Assembly: GCF_000813005.1 (NCBI RefSeq)
Contig: NZ_JSYP01000014.1
Span: forward strand, 124,001-188,000
From: Flavobacterium sp. KMS
Lineage (GTDB): Bacteria; Bacteroidota; Bacteroidia; Flavobacteriales; Flavobacteriaceae
Direction of reading: 5' to 3'
Length of the DNA: 64,000 nucleotides
The notes beneath the pieces were generated by a model, which was not told where the DNA came from, did no database searches, and saw nothing but the letters and a program-made list of their open reading frames with translations. Position 1 is the stretch's first letter; every line of letters starts with the position of its first letter. Of this stretch, positions 57,820 through 64,000 are shown piece by piece. Made by a program: the position numbers and the translations under genes.

Positions 57820-58659
57820 ATGATAAAAAAAAGTATCTTGCCCAAATTAATAATAAAAAAAGTCTCATTGAAAGCAAATATATTTTCACGCAATATCCTG
57901 TTTTTTTTTGCATTTACATTGGTCTCATTTTCTGACCCGTATACCATAAAAAGAATTTCTGATAAAGATTTTAGATATGAATTTTATACCACAGATAAAA
58001 AAATAAAGCCTGAAAAAGATAAAATTTATCATTGGTTTAAAGGTGGTTTAATTCATGAAGCTCAAGGAGGTGCTGCTGGAGATTTACTAAACGATAAGTT
58101 TATTAAAATGTATCACAGTAATCAATTAGCAGAACAAGGTAAGTATAAAAATGGTCTTCGTGTTGGTCTTTGGAAAACCTGGTATCCCAATGGAGTCATA
58201 GCCACTACACAAATGTGGGTTAATGGTTTACGATCAGGTATATATTCTCGATATGATAAAAATGGAGATTTAATAGAAAACGGAGATTACACTGCTGATA
58301 AAAAGACCGGAAAATGGACAAACACAGAAAGCAAGGACACTCTTATTTATAAAAAAGGTGTTATTGTTATAAAAAAACAATCCCTATTAAAGTCCGAAAA
58401 ATACAAATTAAAACAAGATAAACTAAAATTAGAAGAATCAATTAAAGAACAAAAAAAATCAGAAGCAACTATTGATGCTGCTAAACTTACAGAATACAAA
58501 ACAAAAACAGAAAACGAAAAAAAATTAGCAAAAGAAAAAGCTAAAAAGGAAAAGGAGCAAGATTCGTTGAATAAAAAAATGAGCGAACCTAAAAAAGAGT
58601 CGAAGATAATTAACTTTTTTAAAAATATTTTTAAAAAGAAAGATCGATTAGCGCAATAA
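57820..58659 (+). CDS. MORN-repeat protein with Lys/Glu-rich coiled-coil tail, first gene of the pilus-like operon
   Basis: A 279-aa protein. The N-terminus has a hydrophobic stretch (about 25-40, 'NILFFFAFTLVSFS') that may be a signal or anchor. Residues 85-175 hold variant MORN/YwqK repeats ('QLAEQGKYKNGLRVGLWKTWYPNG', 'MWVNGLRSGIYSRYDKNGDL', 'ENGDYTADKKTGKWTN'). Residues 185-279 are a very charged helical tail (KEKAKKEKEQDSLNKKMSEP) ending in a basic patch. The stop and the next ATG share one base (TAATG), so it belongs to the filament operon. Its function is unknown; MORN-type repeats bind lipids or proteins. Confidence 0.72.
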   Translation: MIKKSILPKLIIKKVSLKANIFSRNILFFFAFTLVSFSDPYTIKRISDKDFRYEFYTTDKKIKPEKDKIYHWFKGGLIHEAQGGAAGDLLNDKFIKMYHSNQLAEQGKYKNGLRVGLWKTWYPNGVIATTQMWVNGLRSGIYSRYDKNGDLIENGDYTADKKTGKWTNTESKDTLIYKKGVIVIKKQSLLKSEKYKLKQDKLKLEESIKEQKKSEATIDAAKLTEYKTKTENEKKLAKEKAKKEKEQDSLNKKMSEPKKESKIINFFKNIFKKKDRLAQ

Positions 58660-59873
58660 TGGTAAAGGCTCACAGTTTATTATATGCTATTTATATTTGC
58701 TTGATTGTATCTATAATTTGTGGGGCATTATTATATTTTGCTAATTTATATAATCAACTCAATTTGTATTACAATTTGCAAGAAGAATTATATATCCAAA
58801 ATCAATCTTTAGTAAATTTTGTCTTAGGTAATAAAATGGTTCCAGTTGAAATTGAAAAAGAGCAACATTCTGGGATCGAAGGTAATTTTGAAACAAAACC
58901 TCATGGTCTCCTTACAATTATTTTAGCCAAATCATACATCGCAAACGACACAGTAGCTTCAGCTCATTTTGTAGGAGCATATAACAGTAATAAAACTGCT
59001 ATCTATCTTACCAATTTATCAAAGTCTCTCTCCTATTCGGGAAGGGTAAAACTTGTTGGTAACAATCAATTACCAAGTACTTTTATTGAAACATCCTACA
59101 TAAACAACGCTAAAAACCAACTTCTTGTTGAAGGAAAAAACACAGTATCTGAGTTACAATTACCAATAATTAACCCTGCTTTTAAAGAAATTTTTAAAAA
59201 AATGAAGTCTGAAAAAGCAAAACTATCTGATATCGAAAAACCAATGGATTCACTCTACTACAATTCCTTTTTTAATGAAACAAAAGAGATTTATGTAAAA
59301 AATTCAACACTAGGGAATATTATTTTTAAAGGTAATTTTATTCTGCGTTCGACAGATTCAATCCGGATAAAAAAAAGTAGTGTTTTAGAAGATGTAATTT
59401 TAATAGCACCCAAAATAACTTTTGAAGAAGGCTTTAAAGGAACTGTCCAGGCCTTTGCAACTCTAGGAATTGAACTAGAAAAAAAAGTAATTTTAAAGTA
59501 TCCATCTGTTGTTTGTGTTTACAATAATAGTTCTGAAGAGAGTAAAATAAAAATAAAAAAAGAATGCCAAATAGTAGGTGCAATTGTTTTGTTTGGAAAT
59601 AGCCCTGAAATGATTGATAAAAATACTATTGAAATAGAAGAAGATGGTTTATTATTTGGTGATTTATATTGTTCTGGAAAAGTAATGCTTAAAAGTAATG
59701 TTTATGGCTCTGTTTACACCAATAGATTTTTTTTAAAAAATAGTTCTACAACTTACGACAATATGATTAGTGACATTGAAATCAATACAGAGAAACGTCA
59801 TAATTATTTTATTTCAATACCAATGTTTAAATCTCAAGAAACAACATATAATGTTATCAAAAAAGTATTATAA
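58659..59873 (+). CDS. GspK/PilX-like protein with bactofilin-like beta-helix domain
   Basis: A 404-aa inner-membrane or pilus-tip protein. The N-terminus 'MVKAHSLLYAIYICLIVSII' looks like a prepilin: Ala4, then H-S-L-L-Y, with Tyr where pilins have Glu at +5, as in GspK/PilX-type proteins that lack Glu5. The long middle (about 40-210) is unrecognised. Residues 215-385 show repeated short beta strands ('VKNSTLGNIIFKGNFILRS', 'KSSVLEDVILIAPKITFEEG', 'CQIVGAIVLFGNSPEMIDK', 'EEDGLLFGDLYCSGKVMLKSNVYGSVYTN' in pieces) like a polymer-forming bactofilin-type beta helix. It overlaps the next gene by 23 bp. The combination is unusual. Confidence 0.65.
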   Translation: MVKAHSLLYAIYICLIVSIICGALLYFANLYNQLNLYYNLQEELYIQNQSLVNFVLGNKMVPVEIEKEQHSGIEGNFETKPHGLLTIILAKSYIANDTVASAHFVGAYNSNKTAIYLTNLSKSLSYSGRVKLVGNNQLPSTFIETSYINNAKNQLLVEGKNTVSELQLPIINPAFKEIFKKMKSEKAKLSDIEKPMDSLYYNSFFNETKEIYVKNSTLGNIIFKGNFILRSTDSIRIKKSSVLEDVILIAPKITFEEGFKGTVQAFATLGIELEKKVILKYPSVVCVYNNSSEESKIKIKKECQIVGAIVLFGNSPEMIDKNTIEIEEDGLLFGDLYCSGKVMLKSNVYGSVYTNRFFLKNSSTTYDNMISDIEINTEKRHNYFISIPMFKSQETTYNVIKKVL

Positions 59874-60180
59874 ACTACCCGCCAATTCAATATTGGAATC
59901 TGTTATAGCCTTAACAATTATTTCTATCTGCCTGTATTTTGCAGTTATGATATTTGCCAGCGTCTATACTTCAAAAACATCAGCAAATTTTTATTGTACC
60001 CAAAATATGGTAAATGAAATCTTTTTTCTAAAAGAAATAGAAAATGATTCCCTACCAAATAAAAACATTTTAATAGAAGAAGAACTACTTAGTAAAGATT
60101 TAAAAAAGATCTCTGTTACATTTAAAGATAGTACACGATTTAAATTTGAAAAAAGTTTCTATGTGCAAAGCAATTTTTAA
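59851..60180 (+). CDS. Minor pseudopilin, GspI-like
   Basis: A 109-aa protein. I start it at ATG 59851 (MLSKKYYKLPANSILESVIA): the frame is open for 27 codons before this, but they overlap the previous gene. The prepilin motif is P-A | N-S-I-L-E, with Ala11 at -1 instead of Gly and Glu16 at +5, followed by a hydrophobic helix ('SVIALTIISICLYFAVMIF'). The short globular part has two to three beta strands. Size and 'ESVIALTI' resemble GspI/PilV. It overlaps the previous gene by 23 bp and the next by 20 bp, so translation is coupled. Confidence 0.72.
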   Translation: MLSKKYYKLPANSILESVIALTIISICLYFAVMIFASVYTSKTSANFYCTQNMVNEIFFLKEIENDSLPNKNILIEEELLSKDLKKISVTFKDSTRFKFEKSFYVQSNF

Positions 60181-60661
60181 TAATCAAAAATCAGTTCCTG
60201 CCTTCTCTATCATTGAAGCAATTGTAGGCATGGCAATAACTGCAATTATAATGGGAGTTATATTCATGATTTTTACCATTATTACAGATAGAATGCTAGA
60301 TTTTAAAAATCAAAATCAACTAATAAATGATTTGAATCGATTAACATACTGTCTTAATAAAGATATTTTTGAAAAAGAACAAATGACACTTGTTGACAAC
60401 ACAATATTCTTTAATGGATACTCCGGTTTGAAAAGTAGCTATCAATTCTCAAATAATTATATTTTAAGAAGTAATGATACATTTATAGACACCTTTCAAA
60501 TCAAATTAAATACTATAGTTGTGGATACAATAAGAAGTAAATCAGGAAAGCTTTTTTTTCAAAAAATTAAATTAAACATAGAACCAAATGAAAAAGTAAT
60601 GGATCTAAAATTTTATAAAAGAATCTATCCTAATGAATTATTACAAACAATAAACCAATAA
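60161..60661 (+). CDS. Minor pseudopilin, GspJ-like
   Basis: A 166-aa protein. I start it at ATG 60161 (MCKAIFNNQKSVPAFSIIEA). A TTG 15 bp earlier is possible but less likely. The prepilin site is V-P-A | F-S-I-I-E, with Ala14 at -1 and Glu19 at +5, then the helix 'AIVGMAITAIIMGVIFMIFT'. A beta-rich C-terminal domain follows ('NTIFFNGYSGLKSSYQFSNN'). It resembles GspJ/PilW-type proteins. It overlaps the GspF gene start by one base (TAATG). Confidence 0.75.
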   Translation: MCKAIFNNQKSVPAFSIIEAIVGMAITAIIMGVIFMIFTIITDRMLDFKNQNQLINDLNRLTYCLNKDIFEKEQMTLVDNTIFFNGYSGLKSSYQFSNNYILRSNDTFIDTFQIKLNTIVVDTIRSKSGKLFFQKIKLNIEPNEKVMDLKFYKRIYPNELLQTINQ

Positions 60662-61782
60662 TGAGTTTTGATTTATCAACATACAAAACAAATAAATCTA
60701 AGAGTAACGATTTTAAGATTAAAACTAAATCATTTCAGTTTTCAAAAAAACTTCCCGACAAAAGAAAGGAAATTTTTTATAGAGAATTAGGGATGCTACT
60801 AAAATCTGGTGTTGACTTTAAAAAAGCACTTGAAATACTAAGCAATCAATCAAGTAATAGATTTGAAAAAGAAATTATCCTTCAAATAAAAGAAAAAATA
60901 GTAGAAGGAAGAAGCATTTATGAGTCTATGCGTGAAAGCAATCAATTTTCTGCGTACGAATATTATAGTATACAAATAGGTGAAGAAACAAGAAAACTTG
61001 AGGAAGTTTTAGGAGAACTTCAAAAATATTTCAATCAAAAAATTCAGATGAAAAGGCAAATTATTTCGGTAATGACCTATCCTACCATTATTATGTTAGT
61101 CACAGTTCTGGTTCTTTATTTTATGTTGAATAAAGTAGTTCCTATGTTTAGCTCCGTTTTTAAGCAATTTGGAAGTGAATTACCTAAAAGCACCCAAATT
61201 ATTATAAAAATTTCAAATCACTCAGGAATAATTTTTTCAATAATAATTGGCATTATACTAGGTTTTATATTCATTCATATTCTTTTAAAAGAAAGAAGTA
61301 GTTATAGATTACTTACCTCTCATATAGCATTAAAAATACCTTATTTTGGAAACCTGATTAAGAAGATTTACATCTCCCGTTTTTGCCAAGCCATGAATTT
61401 ATTGATTACTTCTAAAACTACATTAATTAATTCTTTAACCTTAACGGCTAAAATGATTAGTTTTTATCCAATTGAAATTGCTATACATCAAATAAAAGAA
61501 GATATTACAAGAGGTGCTTCATTAAACGAAAGTTTAAAAAAACATACTGTATTTGAAAATAAAATGGTCTCTATGGTAGAGGTCGCCGAACAAGTTAACC
61601 AACTAGAAACAATGTTTGAGCGCTTAACTGAGCAATACAACGAAGAAATAAATCATCAAACAAAAATGATAGGAGTAATTCTTGAACCAATGATTATCAT
61701 TGTGATTGGTATTATTGTAGGAATAATTATGGTCTCTATGTACGCTCCAATGTTTGATTTAAGTAAAATTATAAATAAATAG
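60661..61782 (+). CDS. GspF/PilC-family inner-membrane platform protein
   Basis: A 373-aa protein of the type II secretion / type IV pilus platform. It has two GspF domains (about 35-155 and 235-360): 'FYRELGMLLKSGVDFKKALEIL', 'EGRSIYESMRESNQFSAYEYYSIQIGEETRKLEEVL' (in pieces) and 'YISRFCQAMNLLITSKTTLINSL', 'GASLNESLKKHTVFENKMVSMVEVAEQ'. Membrane segments are at about 132-155, 182-208 and 345-365. It connects the cytosolic ATPase to filament assembly. Family and role are clear; the cargo or pilus type is not. Confidence 0.9.
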   Translation: MSFDLSTYKTNKSKSNDFKIKTKSFQFSKKLPDKRKEIFYRELGMLLKSGVDFKKALEILSNQSSNRFEKEIILQIKEKIVEGRSIYESMRESNQFSAYEYYSIQIGEETRKLEEVLGELQKYFNQKIQMKRQIISVMTYPTIIMLVTVLVLYFMLNKVVPMFSSVFKQFGSELPKSTQIIIKISNHSGIIFSIIIGIILGFIFIHILLKERSSYRLLTSHIALKIPYFGNLIKKIYISRFCQAMNLLITSKTTLINSLTLTAKMISFYPIEIAIHQIKEDITRGASLNESLKKHTVFENKMVSMVEVAEQVNQLETMFERLTEQYNEEINHQTKMIGVILEPMIIIVIGIIVGIIMVSMYAPMFDLSKIINK

Positions 61783-61802
61783 TATTATCGAAATTGAATT
61801 TG

Positions 61803-61810
61803 TACTTTTG
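61803..61810 (+). promoter_or_regulatory. -7 promoter element TACTTTTG before the GspG-like gene
   Basis: A full match to TANNTTTG, 39 bp before the ATG of the GspG-like gene, in the only sizable gap (67 bp) of the operon. It could give the major pseudopilin extra transcription. Confidence 0.45.
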
Positions 61811-61849
61811 TCAATTAACACTTTTTAACAAGTAAAATGACATATTAAA

Positions 61850-62278
61850 ATGACAAAACACAAACATAAACCTACAAAAAACAAACTAATGCTTAAAGCT
61901 TACTCTTTAACAGAAATATTGATTGTGTTATGTATCATTGGTATTTTATTACTTATGGTATTACCAAACCAAACTTCTGTAATTGGCCAAGCAAAAGCTA
62001 TTGAAGCACAAGCTATGCTCAATCAAGTTTATGGTTTAGAGAAAAGTTATTTTTATAGACACTCAAAATATTCTAACAGTCTGGACGAAATTGGTTTCGA
62101 GCAAGAAAAAACTACTGATGAAGGTGGGCAAGCTATTTACAAAATTGAAATCCTAGAAGCCTCTAATGATTCTTTTACAGCTAGGGCAACTGCTACTTCT
62201 GACTTAGATGGTGATGGAAATTACAACACTTGGGAGATTGACAATAAAAAAGTATTAACTGAAGTAATAAAAGAATAA
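61850..62278 (+). CDS. GspG/PilA-like major pseudopilin
   Basis: A 142-aa filament subunit. The prepilin motif is L-K-A | Y-S-L-T-E: Ala17 at -1, Glu22 at +5, followed by a typical helix 'ILIVLCIIGILLLMVLPNQ'. The globular part has the GspG-like order 'AIEAQAMLNQVYGLEKSYFYRHSKYSNSLDEIGF' (in pieces) and ends with 'TSDLDGDGNYNTWEID', an Asp-rich loop like the Ca-binding loop of GspG. An alternative start at Met14 would give a 4-residue leader (MLKA). It lies between GspF and the prepilin peptidase. Confidence 0.87.
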   Translation: MTKHKHKPTKNKLMLKAYSLTEILIVLCIIGILLLMVLPNQTSVIGQAKAIEAQAMLNQVYGLEKSYFYRHSKYSNSLDEIGFEQEKTTDEGGQAIYKIEILEASNDSFTARATATSDLDGDGNYNTWEIDNKKVLTEVIKE

Positions 62279-62279
62279 A

Positions 62280-62756
62280 TTGAAAACTGCTTTTACAATC
62301 TTACTATTTAGTTTAATGATAGTCTTCGTTCAAGATTGGAAATACCGAAAAATACATCTTATTTTACCAATAACTATTTTCTCTATTTCCTTCTTTATAA
62401 TCAAAAACAATGATTTATTAAAAATCACAATTTTAAATCTGAGTTTTTTTTTAATCACACTAAGTGTATTGATAATATACATGAGTTTTAAATCTAAAAA
62501 AATTATAAATCCATTCCAGCATTATTTTGGAATAGGTGATTTATTATTTTATGTTTCTATTACTCCGCTATTTTCACAACAAAACTACATTCTATTTTTT
62601 GTCCTTTCAATGTTATTTGCGATTGGGCTACAACTTAGTTTAAAAAAAATATCTACAGAAGAAACGGTTCCTTTAGCAGGATTTTCAGCTTTACTTTTAT
62701 GCCTCGTCTTTTTAAAAGACCACTATTTTTTGTTTCATAAAATGACTTTATTATAA
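62280..62756 (+). CDS. Type IV prepilin peptidase-like protein (short form)
   Basis: A 158-aa membrane protein of about five hydrophobic segments. It starts at TTG, one base after the pseudopilin stop; the encoded MKTAFTILLFSLMIVFVQDW gives the first helix. The two catalytic Asp of A24 peptidases appear as D19 ('VQDWKYRKIHL', D-x3-R-x-I) and D87 in 'FGIGDLLF' (GxGD). The N-methyltransferase/Cys-rich domain of PilD is missing, so it is a short peptidase-only form. It should process the Ala-type prepilin leaders in this operon. It ends with TAATG shared with the ATPase gene. Confidence 0.82.
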   Translation: MKTAFTILLFSLMIVFVQDWKYRKIHLILPITIFSISFFIIKNNDLLKITILNLSFFLITLSVLIIYMSFKSKKIINPFQHYFGIGDLLFYVSITPLFSQQNYILFFVLSMLFAIGLQLSLKKISTEETVPLAGFSALLLCLVFLKDHYFLFHKMTLL

Positions 62757-64000
62757 TGAAACAGGATATTATAATTCTTTCCGAAAATCATCATATCGTT
62801 ACTAATGATCTTGCCAATCAGTACCGAATATTGCCAAAATCAATGTATGAAAACACATTAGAACTATATGTAGATAATTCTAGTGATAATGAAGATAACA
62901 AAGAAGAATTAGAGCTTTTTTTGGGGAAAAATATCATTTTTCACCCTATAAATACTTCTGAAATAGAAAAAGCTTTATCTACTTATTACCGAAAAGAGCG
63001 TCCTTTAAGCTCCAATAAATCCTTAAATGTAGATAAAGGGGACTTTCTTGAAAATTTACTATTTGAAGCTAAATCATTAAAATGTAGTGATATACATTTT
63101 GAAGTTTATGAAGATTTCTCACGCATCCGCTTTAGGATAGATGGGCAATTAATAGAACGTTATAAAATAGAACATGATAACTATTTAGAATTAGTCAATA
63201 AAGTTAAAATTAGAGCCAAATTAAATATAACTGAAAAAAGACTACCACAAGATGGAAGAATTACCAATGATGCATTTGATATAAGAATTTCAATTTTGCC
63301 CACTCTATTTGGTGAAAAAATAGTAATGCGTCTTTTAGGTCAAGATGCATCAAATATTGATTTGAATACATTGGGCCTTAAAAAAGAAGAATTAGAAAGT
63401 TATCTGGAAGCTGTAAAAAAACCAAATGGAATCATATTAATAAGTGGTCCAACTGGCTCTGGAAAAACTACGACTCTTTATGCTACATTAAAATTACTAA
63501 ATCATAGCAGAAGAAACATTGTAACTGTTGAAGATCCAATAGAATATACTTTAAAAGGGATTAATCAAGTACAATTAAAAGAAGACATTGGCTTAACTTT
63601 TTCATCGGCATTAAAATCATTCTTACGCCAGGATCCGGATATAATCATGTTGGGGGAAATTCGCGATTCCGAAACAGCCTTAATGGCAATTCGAGCATCA
63701 CTAACAGGTCATCTCGTTTTATCAACTATACATACCAACTCGGCAATAGGAACAATCTCCAGATTAATAGATATGGGAGTTCCTTCCTATTTAATTGCCG
63801 AAACTTTAAATCTATCTGTAGCACAACGATTGGTTAGGAAACTTTGTGATAATTGCAAAAAAGAAACAAATTGTAATCCTTTAGATTTTCCGCTAAATTT
63901 TAAATTCCCATATGAAATTTCTTCTTATTATAAGCCAATTGGATGCAATAAATGCTTCCATACAGGATATAAAGGCAGAACAGCAATCTACGAAATCTTA
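62756..64000 (+). CDS. GspE/PilB-family assembly ATPase (partial, 3' end outside)
   Basis: 415 codons are visible; the gene runs off the right edge. It begins MKQDIIILSENHHIVTNDLA; the ATG overlaps the peptidase stop. Motifs: Walker A GPTGSGKT (231-238), the Asp box 'VTVEDPIEY', Walker B 'IIMLGEIRD' (from 296), the His box 'STIHTNSAIGTISRLIDMG', and a Zn site with Cys364-x2-Cys367 and Cys397-x2-Cys400. The short N-terminal domain (about 95 residues before 'LLFEAKSLKCSDIHFEVY') and the four Cys match GspE/PilB extension ATPases rather than PilT. It drives pseudopilin assembly. Confidence 0.92.
   Translation, partial: MKQDIIILSENHHIVTNDLANQYRILPKSMYENTLELYVDNSSDNEDNKEELELFLGKNIIFHPINTSEIEKALSTYYRKERPLSSNKSLNVDKGDFLENLLFEAKSLKCSDIHFEVYEDFSRIRFRIDGQLIERYKIEHDNYLELVNKVKIRAKLNITEKRLPQDGRITNDAFDIRISILPTLFGEKIVMRLLGQDASNIDLNTLGLKKEELESYLEAVKKPNGIILISGPTGSGKTTTLYATLKLLNHSRRNIVTVEDPIEYTLKGINQVQLKEDIGLTFSSALKSFLRQDPDIIMLGEIRDSETALMAIRASLTGHLVLSTIHTNSAIGTISRLIDMGVPSYLIAETLNLSVAQRLVRKLCDNCKKETNCNPLDFPLNFKFPYEISSYYKPIGCNKCFHTGYKGRTAIYEIL

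What the first reader, a model, noticed from the sequence alone, without database searches (positions are those of the whole stretch)
57820..64000. Compact type IV pilus / type II secretion-like operon in a Flavobacterium-type genome
Seven or eight tightly coupled genes (mostly 1-23 bp overlaps) encode a GspK-like protein, two minor pseudopilins, GspF, a GspG-like pseudopilin, a short prepilin peptidase and a GspE ATPase. Flavobacteria move by gliding and secrete through T9SS, and filament systems of this type are poorly studied there. The first two gene products (MORN/coiled coil and bactofilin-like) are not standard parts. A role in DNA uptake or secretion is inference.
Basis: partly seen in the sequence, partly recalled or inferred. 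Interest (0 to 1): 0.72.

Follow-up and report, generated by a model that had tools for sequence, protein, structure and literature searches.

The report
Pilus-like pump beside giant toxin genes
The genes are the first half of a complete secretion machine built from pilus parts; every genome found here to carry it also has genes for large Rhs-type toxins, often right beside it, which suggests that exporting those toxins is its job.

Summary
The window ends inside a 13-gene operon; the genome continues with the rest of GspE, a secretin, and L-, M- and C-position genes. A second full paralogous operon lies on another contig in cyclically permuted order; all 13 gene pairs are under purifying selection. 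This is the Bacteroidota 'T2SS' reported from Cytophaga and F. johnsoniae; its cargo is unknown and others place it with type IVa pili.

New here is a link to Rhs/YD-repeat polymorphic toxins. Of Flavobacteriaceae with this secretin 61 of 61 carry an Rhs core, against 50 of 238 without it; in a phylum sample 32 of 32 against 110 of 363. Rhs-type genes lie in the same ~20-kb stretch in 49 of 80, 17 of 20 and 15 of 20 loci, and in 0 of 20 control windows. A ~2000-aa partner occurs in 11 of 11 tested carriers of this subtype and in 1 of 50 Rhs genomes without the machine, that one with an in-frame stop. The 404-aa protein is modelled as a pilin with a ComZ-like beta-solenoid head.

Best reading: a pilus-derived exporter of giant Rhs toxins. 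Secretion is untested.

The parts
57820..58659 (+). MORN-repeat / coiled-coil protein, first gene of the operon (279 aa)
   Evidence: ORF; PF07661 MORN_2 27.8 bits, cut-off 29.6; gene order MORN to C as here in 47 of 80 named loci
58659..59873 (+). GspK-position minor pilin with beta-solenoid head, ComZ-like (404 aa)
   Evidence: AF2 pLDDT 89.6, helix 2-57 then beta-helix; Foldseek best 6qvi ComZ E 1e-4, but TM-score only 0.20; VIA Z 12.3 over 207 residues, level with ice-binding solenoids
59851..60180 (+). minor pseudopilin, I-position (109 aa from ATG; 136 aa from an upstream GTG)
   Evidence: ORF; Glu5-type leader pattern in 64 of 65 complete I proteins of the named loci; no Pfam pilin match
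60161..60661 (+). minor pseudopilin, J-position (166 aa from ATG; 171 aa from TTG at 60146)
   Evidence: N_methyl E 0.0022, under cut-off; Glu5-type leader pattern in 60 of 70 complete J proteins
60661..61782 (+). GspF/PilC inner-membrane platform (373 aa)
   Evidence: PF00482 1.6e-45, two stretches
61850..62278 (+). GspG/PilA-like major pseudopilin (142 aa)
   Evidence: TIGR02532 prepilin leader 17.2 bits, over its cut-off 16.3; PilA_Myxo 4.5e-12, ComGC 1.7e-7 and GspG 1.2e-5 under theirs; leader pattern in 77 of 77
62280..62756 (+). short prepilin peptidase, GspO/PilD-like (158 aa)
   Evidence: PF01478 6.5e-5, 23.8 bits, cut-off 26.5; GxGD pattern in 68 of 77 complete O proteins
62756..64000 (+). 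GspE/PilB assembly ATPase, cut by the window end; the whole gene is 468 aa and ends 162 bp beyond the window
   Evidence: PF00437 9.8e-119; full ORF L003:8757-10163; Walker A pattern in 79 of 80 complete frames

Best explanation
The window holds the 5' half of a Bacteroidota type-II-like secretion operon. Inferred mechanism: Rhs/YD proteins and their partners cross the inner membrane by Sec (their N-termini look like signal peptides by eye) and are held in the periplasm by helpers encoded in the same neighbourhood (OmpH/Skp-like, LolA-like and lipoprotein-like genes). GspE then drives GspF to assemble a short, non-retracting pseudopilus of G with I and J and a beta-solenoid tip pilin (K), which binds or pushes the giant Rhs cargo out through the secretin. 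Shown: the parts, their conservation, the genomic link of the machine to Rhs genes. Inferred: that the Rhs proteins are the cargo, the role of each helper, the piston mode, and antibacterial action of the toxins.
For: Complete machine, duplicated, dN/dS 0.05-0.18 in 13 of 13 gene pairs. Co-occurrence: Rhs core in 61 of 61 carriers v 50 of 238 non-carriers (Fisher p 4e-33), and 32 of 32 v 110 of 363 in the phylum sample, 21 of the 32 outside Flavobacteriaceae (p 5e-16). None of the 50 Rhs-positive non-carriers has a secretin match. Adjacency: Rhs core or Rhs N-half gene in 49 of 80 type A, 17 of 20 type B and 15 of 20 other-family loci v 0 of 20 control windows; where present, median distance 1317, 1535 and 775 bp. 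The ~2000-aa partner occurs in 11 of 11 tested type A carriers and 1 of 50 Rhs genomes without the machine, that one with a stop. No T9SS sorting domain was matched in the Rhs protein or in three giants. No PilT-like ATPase over cut-off in this genome.
Against: No secretion experiment. 50 of 111 Rhs-positive Flavobacteriaceae have no secretin, so Rhs proteins as a class do not need it. 31 of 80 named type A loci show neither Rhs marker in the stretch held; 14 of the 80 are shorter than 17 kb. Giants are not always beside the machine: in the window's genome both copies lie elsewhere, one about 70 kb from the second operon, and G195 has five on five contigs. The published phenotype of the Cytophaga system is cellulose use, with no mention of Rhs. 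The tip pilin resembles a DNA-binding competence pilin. Another paper lists a PilT homologue in F. johnsoniae at 43% identity; whether that is this ATPase was not checked. Genomes in a sample are related, so the Fisher values overstate independence; genome size was not controlled.
Confidence: 0.67

Rival explanations
1. General type-II-like exporter of many surface or hydrolytic proteins; the Rhs genes are neighbours because both belong to a mobile or competition-related island.
For: Cytophaga mutants in the D, F and G genes are defective in cellulose use. Other large surface-type genes (a VWA/PKD protein, tail-fibre-like proteins) also lie near some loci.
Against: Co-occurrence was complete in both samples (61 of 61, 32 of 32), spans ten families, and Rhs-type genes lie near the machine in 81 of 120 loci held; the giant partner is nearly confined to type A carriers.
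Confidence: 0.18
2. A type IV pilus for DNA uptake, with K as a ComZ-like DNA receptor at the tip.
For: K is closest by Foldseek to ComZ, a DNA-binding pilin of Thermus argued to sit at the tip. Another group read F. johnsoniae homologues as a possible T4P-type uptake system, including a PilT homologue.
Against: No PilT-like ATPase over cut-off in this genome. F. johnsoniae, listed with this cluster, gave no transformants under the conditions tried. It would not explain the Rhs link.
Confidence: 0.06
3. A surface filament for adhesion or motility rather than secretion.
For: Published trees place the Bacteroidota system with type IVa pili; most of the G, I and J pilins have Glu5-type leaders.
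Against: No retraction ATPase seen in this genome; Cytophaga mutants show no noticeable motility change; the Rhs link stays unexplained.
Confidence: 0.05
4. The Rhs proteins leave by the Bacteroidota T6SS and the filament operon is unrelated.
For: Rhs toxins are known T6SS cargo elsewhere (recalled); one genome (G036) has Rhs cores within 10 kb of its TssC gene.
Against: TssC occurs in only 14 of 61 carriers and 11 of 50 Rhs-positive non-carriers.
Confidence: 0.04

Closest known systems
Bacteroidota 'T2SS' (Cytophaga hutchinsonii CHU_3191-3201, F. johnsoniae Fjoh_0611-0622; PMC5553014, passages seen)
   Same: Same parts list (D, E, F, G, O, minor pseudopilins, L/M/C candidates); the published F. 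johnsoniae locus-tag order fits the window operon.
   Different: That paper reports clusters in four other members of the phylum and a cellulose phenotype; 'rhs' does not occur in it. Here MORN, ComZ-like tip and Ig-like genes are described and the machine is tied to Rhs genes.
Proteobacterial type II secretion system
   Same: Secretin, ATPase, platform, pseudopilins, no retraction ATPase seen, operon layout.
   Different: NCBIfam equivalog scores for GspE, GspD and GspG are under cut-off; K has a beta-solenoid head, unlike GspK (recalled); helper genes added.
Type IVa pilus / Thermus competence pilus with ComZ
   Same: The PilQ model scores slightly above the GspD model on the secretin; ComZ-like tip pilin; published trees cluster the Bacteroidota system with T4aP.
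   Different: No PilT-like ATPase over cut-off in this genome; Rhs genes beside the locus.
Rhs polymorphic toxin systems (Zhang 2012, PMC3482391, passages seen)
   Same: Rhs repeats and core, core-bearing C-terminal cassettes in a row, HINT pretoxin domain in 2 of 10 cassettes scanned.
   Different: There, 'T2SS/Sec-dependent' is defined by a signal peptide, with no signature neighbour genes. Here a specific outer-membrane machine is tied to them.
Tc toxins (TcB/TcC cocoon)
   Same: The split into a large protein without Rhs core and an Rhs protein recalls TcB/TcC; the N-terminal motif looks SpvB-like (both from memory).
   Different: No Pfam, NCBIfam or PDB sequence match of the giant and a poor structure model; likeness only.

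Membership tests
Type II secretion system | Secretin encoded with the inner-membrane parts | tested here: met
   PF00263 1.3e-33, gene 4 bp after gspE
Type II secretion system | Assembly ATPase and GspF platform | tested here: met
   PF00437 9.8e-119, PF00482 1.6e-45
Type II secretion system | GspG/H/I/J/K pseudopilin set | tested here: inconclusive
   Leaders present, but GspG model 25.3 bits v cut-off 88.85; K fold is ComZ-like
Type II secretion system | GspL, GspM, GspC | tested here: inconclusive
   L: PilN domain 21.2 v 22.8 bits; M and C: no Pfam family; assigned by position
Type II secretion system | NCBIfam equivalog cut-offs for GspE and GspD | tested here: not met
   477.5 v 630.25 and 112.6 v 351.35 bits
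Type II secretion system | Phylogenetic place inside T2SS | not tested
   Denise et al. 2019 report that it clusters with T4aP (passages)
Type IVa pilus | Retraction ATPase PilT | tested here: not met
   Only two T2SSE hits over cut-off in this genome, both the operon ATPases; other carriers not checked
Type IVa pilus | NCBIfam cut-offs for PilB and PilQ | tested here: not met
   468 v 675.65 and 124.3 v 284.35 bits
Bacteroidota 'T2SS' of C. hutchinsonii / F. johnsoniae | Same gene set and order | tested here: inconclusive
   Order agrees with the published table for Fjoh_0611-0622; sequences of those genes were not compared directly
Rhs polymorphic toxins (the neighbours) | Rhs repeats, core and variable C-terminal cassettes | tested here: met
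   3571-aa protein: RHS_repeat 50.8 bits over cut-off, core 27.0 bits, under cut-off 32.5; two core cassettes beside it over cut-off
Rhs polymorphic toxins (the neighbours) | Toxic activity and cognate immunity | not testable with these tools
   Small genes follow the cassettes; no activity shown

The most novel reading that the evidence does not exclude
A separate kind of secretion system: a type IVa-pilus-derived, non-retracting exporter that evolved independently of the proteobacterial T2SS and is dedicated to giant, multi-chain Rhs toxins in Bacteroidota, with its own tip pilin, periplasmic chaperone and lipoprotein helpers.
Probability: 0.5. Interest if true: 0.88.

Novelty: new variant of a known kind. 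Interest (0 to 1): 0.75.

Why it matters
The cargo of the Bacteroidota 'T2SS' is unknown, and the system was flagged in 2019 as a possible novel secretion system derived from T4aP. The exit route of signal-peptide Rhs toxins in these two-membrane bacteria is also open, as far as the papers seen here show. The link found here would answer both with one hypothesis that a deletion strain and its secretome can test. It would add an export route for Bacteroidota besides T9SS and T6SS, with giant proteins as cargo of a pseudopilus machine.

Tried and rejected
DNA uptake was considered because of the ComZ-like tip and rejected as leading idea (no PilT seen here, no explanation of the Rhs link). A T6SS control with PF05943 was useless: 0 of 299, and that model does not see the Bacteroidota T6SS; it was repeated with PF17541 on 61 and 50 genomes. 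The model of the giant's first 1100 residues was poor (pLDDT 54.8) and its fold search gave no match below E 0.001, so no fold claim is made. PDB profile search of the giant: no hit. Pfam on ten Rhs cassettes (10 of the 20 listed): 8 without any family, 2 with PT-HINT. Paper searches for a link between the Bacteroidota T2SS and Rhs showed none in the listings seen; only open-licence full texts were searched. An ATPase tree with reference systems was not built for lack of reference sequences.

Rows left out: weak secretin hits (29 of the 61 genomes, E 1e-10 to 1e-21, 28 of them in family f18) were not counted as carriers; 4 of these 29 have an Rhs core. One carrier, G507, has only a marginal Rhs core (E 6.9e-6). 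The other-family set took 20 loci from 19 of the 21 carriers outside Flavobacteriaceae (G638 and G649 left out for the 20-region limit); the secretin profile labelled 19 of these 20 loci. The type B set is 20 of the 44 type B carriers; four more type B loci had been looked at earlier and are not in the count. Control windows were 20 round-coordinate stretches, one each from 20 carrier genomes, on long contigs. The giant-partner test used 11 of 17 type A carriers, the six others having helped to define the giant family (A2 or A7), and 19 of 44 type B carriers; G084's match is partial (E 1.6e-60). An earlier count said 10 of 19 weak type B hits; the table gives 9, which is used here.
Full report
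WHAT IS THERE. The window's last 6.2 kb carry eight tightly packed genes on the + strand. Pfam matches T2SSF at 1.6e-45 and T2SSE at 9.8e-119, with weaker matches for the prepilin peptidase, an N-methylation motif and a MORN_2 repeat. The window is stretch 124001-188000 of contig C14 of a 5.6-Mb genome in 58 contigs. Reading on past the window end (L003) gives the rest of the ATPase (468 aa), a 635-aa secretin four bases later, then genes of 396, 174, 314 and 166 aa, all co-directional. The secretin has PF00263 1.3e-33, the 396-aa protein a PilN domain just under cut-off, the 314-aa protein Ig-like domains; the 174- and 166-aa proteins have no Pfam family and are called M and C by position. 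So the operon has 13 genes: MORN, K, I, J, F, G, O, E, D, L, M, IgL, C.

A SECOND COPY. Contig C21 holds a second full set (L004:4294-15635, - strand) in the order G, O, E, D, L, M, IgL, C, MORN, K, I, J, F, a cyclic permutation of the first. The two secretins are 88% identical and sister to each other in a tree of 83 rows (SH-aLRT 86, under the 95 mark). All 13 gene pairs have dN/dS between 0.05 and 0.18, with dS 0.76 to 2.5, so both copies have long been kept. The genome has two secretin matches at E up to 1 and two T2SSE matches over cut-off, those of the two operons; no PilT-like ATPase was seen.

THE TIP PROTEIN. The 404-aa protein was modelled with an alignment of 38 at pLDDT 89.6: one helix from residue 2 to 57, then a beta-helix. 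Foldseek's only match below 0.001 is ComZ of Thermus thermophilus (6qvi, E 1e-4), with low TM-scores of 0.20 to 0.26 for its three chains; VIA gives Z 12.3, rmsd 3.5, 207 residues, level with ice-binding beta-solenoids (best 12.9). ComZ is a pilin with an inserted beta-solenoid, argued to sit at the pilus tip and shown to bind DNA (PMC6561018, passages seen). The Glu5-type leader pattern was found in 0 of 69 complete K proteins; GspK also lacks Glu5 (recalled).

WHERE ELSE. Among 299 Flavobacteriaceae genomes the secretin is found in 61: 17 with the ~640-aa form of the window (type A), 44 with a ~740-aa form (type B). The gene order of the window, MORN to C, is seen in 47 of the 80, and in a further 13 only the MORN label is missing.

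THE RHS LINK, 1: CO-OCCURRENCE. The Rhs core (TIGR03696) is in 111 of the same 299 genomes. All 61 carriers are among them; of the 238 non-carriers 50 are (Fisher p 4e-33). None of these 50 has a secretin match. In 395 genomes of the phylum, 32 have a strong secretin match (E below 1e-60) and 32 of 32 have an Rhs core, against 110 of 363 others (p 5e-16). One of the 32 (G507) is marginal. Four carriers occur in both samples, so 89 different carriers were seen, 89 with Rhs; 21 of them lie outside Flavobacteriaceae, in nine other families. A built-in control: 29 genomes with a weak, distant secretin match have an Rhs core in only 4. These genomes are related, so the p-values are guides only.

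THE RHS LINK, 2: ADJACENCY. I labelled open frames with profiles for the Rhs core and for the N-terminal Rhs-like motif. One or both occur in 49 of 80 named type A loci, 17 of 20 type B loci, 15 of 20 loci from other families, and 0 of 20 control windows of carrier genomes. Where present, the median distance to the nearest machine gene is 1317, 1535 and 775 bp. In one distant genome (L192) the secretin gene and the next gene lie between two Rhs-type genes on the same strand. In the window's genome a 3571-aa Rhs protein lies convergent to the operon, about 7.9 kb past its end, with two core-bearing cassettes in between, and a cassette also stands near the second copy.

THE RHS LINK, 3: ONE RUN OF GENES IN PART OF THE GENOMES. 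A lipobox pattern is in 27 of 35 of the ~200-aa family and 35 of 77 IgL proteins. In 31 of 75 named loci with a C gene a helper or giant gene follows on the same strand. In the window's genome the gene before the Rhs gene is LolA3 family (227 bits, over cut-off). The giant is found at E 2e-60 or better in 11 of 11 tested type A carriers (G084 only in part), in 0 of 19 type B carriers (9 of 19 have weak matches, E 1e-30 to 1e-38), and in 1 of 50 Rhs-positive non-carriers, which has an in-frame stop; a second non-carrier has a weak match (p 3e-11). The one broken copy looks like a cargo gene decaying after its exporter was lost. Giants also lie away from the machine: the window's genome has two, one about 70 kb from the second operon, and G195 has five.

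HOW IT LIKELY WORKS. The Rhs protein begins with a stretch that looks like a signal peptide (by eye) and neither it nor three giants matched a T9SS sorting domain, so Sec export followed by an outer-membrane step is needed (inference). The machine beside them offers a secretin, a pseudopilus and an assembly ATPase, without a retraction motor in this genome. I infer that the K-tipped pseudopilus pushes the giant/Rhs complex through the secretin, with the Skp-like, LolA-like and lipoprotein-like products as periplasmic or surface helpers. HINT pretoxin domains in 2 of 10 cassettes support a polymorphic-toxin nature of the neighbours.

AGAINST. Rhs genes also occur without the machine (50 of 111). 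31 of 80 named loci show no Rhs marker, some because the contig ends. The only published phenotype seen is cellulose use in Cytophaga (PMC5553014, passages seen). PMC7965970 (passages seen) lists a PilT homologue in F. johnsoniae, not checked here, and reports no natural transformation there under its conditions. T6SS is no better partner: TssC in 14 of 61 carriers and 11 of 50 Rhs-positive non-carriers.

WHAT IS KNOWN. PMC5553014 lists the F. johnsoniae cluster Fjoh_0611-0622, in an order that fits the window operon. PMC6668835 (passages seen) reports that the Bacteroidota system clusters with T4aP and may be a novel secretion system derived independently; its guilt-by-association screen over its system types found no systematically associated proteins. 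PMC5395568 (passages seen) states that flavobacteria do not have a T2SS. PMC3482391 (passages seen) assigns many Rhs toxins to 'T2SS', but defines this by a signal peptide with no signature genes. The listings of my searches showed no paper that ties the machine to Rhs. Membership: not a T2SS or T4aP by the curated NCBIfam cut-offs tested, and no PilT here; best filed as the Bacteroidota type-II-like system.

VERDICT.

Noticed in passing
L004:4294-15635 (own genome C21) and L082: The second operon is a cyclic permutation of the window operon; [Flexibacter] sp. ATCC 35103 (L082) has the same permuted order, although the two copies of the window's genome are each other's nearest relatives. Repeated permutation or gene conversion is possible.
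   Followed up: partly
L090 (F. gawalongense) and L097: Rhs-core cassettes stand inside the secretion operon itself, between O and E in L090 and between F and G in L097.
   Followed up: no
L074/L075 (G056) and L076/L077 (G229), type B loci: Rows of about 280-420-aa proteins with secretion-like N-termini that share a C-terminal pattern like LLEKIEE stand beside the machine, five in a row in G056; possible further cargo.
   Followed up: no
G274:C1:364684-368016: A giant-partner gene with an in-frame stop in a genome that has no secretin match.
   Followed up: no
L115-L118, L120, L122-L124, L128, L134, L152 and several type B loci: A response-regulator-like protein of ~225 aa (named by eye, no family search) stands directly beside the machine, in type A loci in the place of the MORN gene.
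   Followed up: no
Phylum sample, family f18 (28 genomes) and one f31 genome: A distant secretin (E 1e-10 to 1e-21) with an Rhs core in only 4 of 29; probably a different filament system.
   Followed up: no
Own genome C46 and C14:197406-199432: Rows of Rhs-core cassettes followed by small genes that may be immunity genes; one small-protein family (F31) recurs beside both machine copies.
   Followed up: partly
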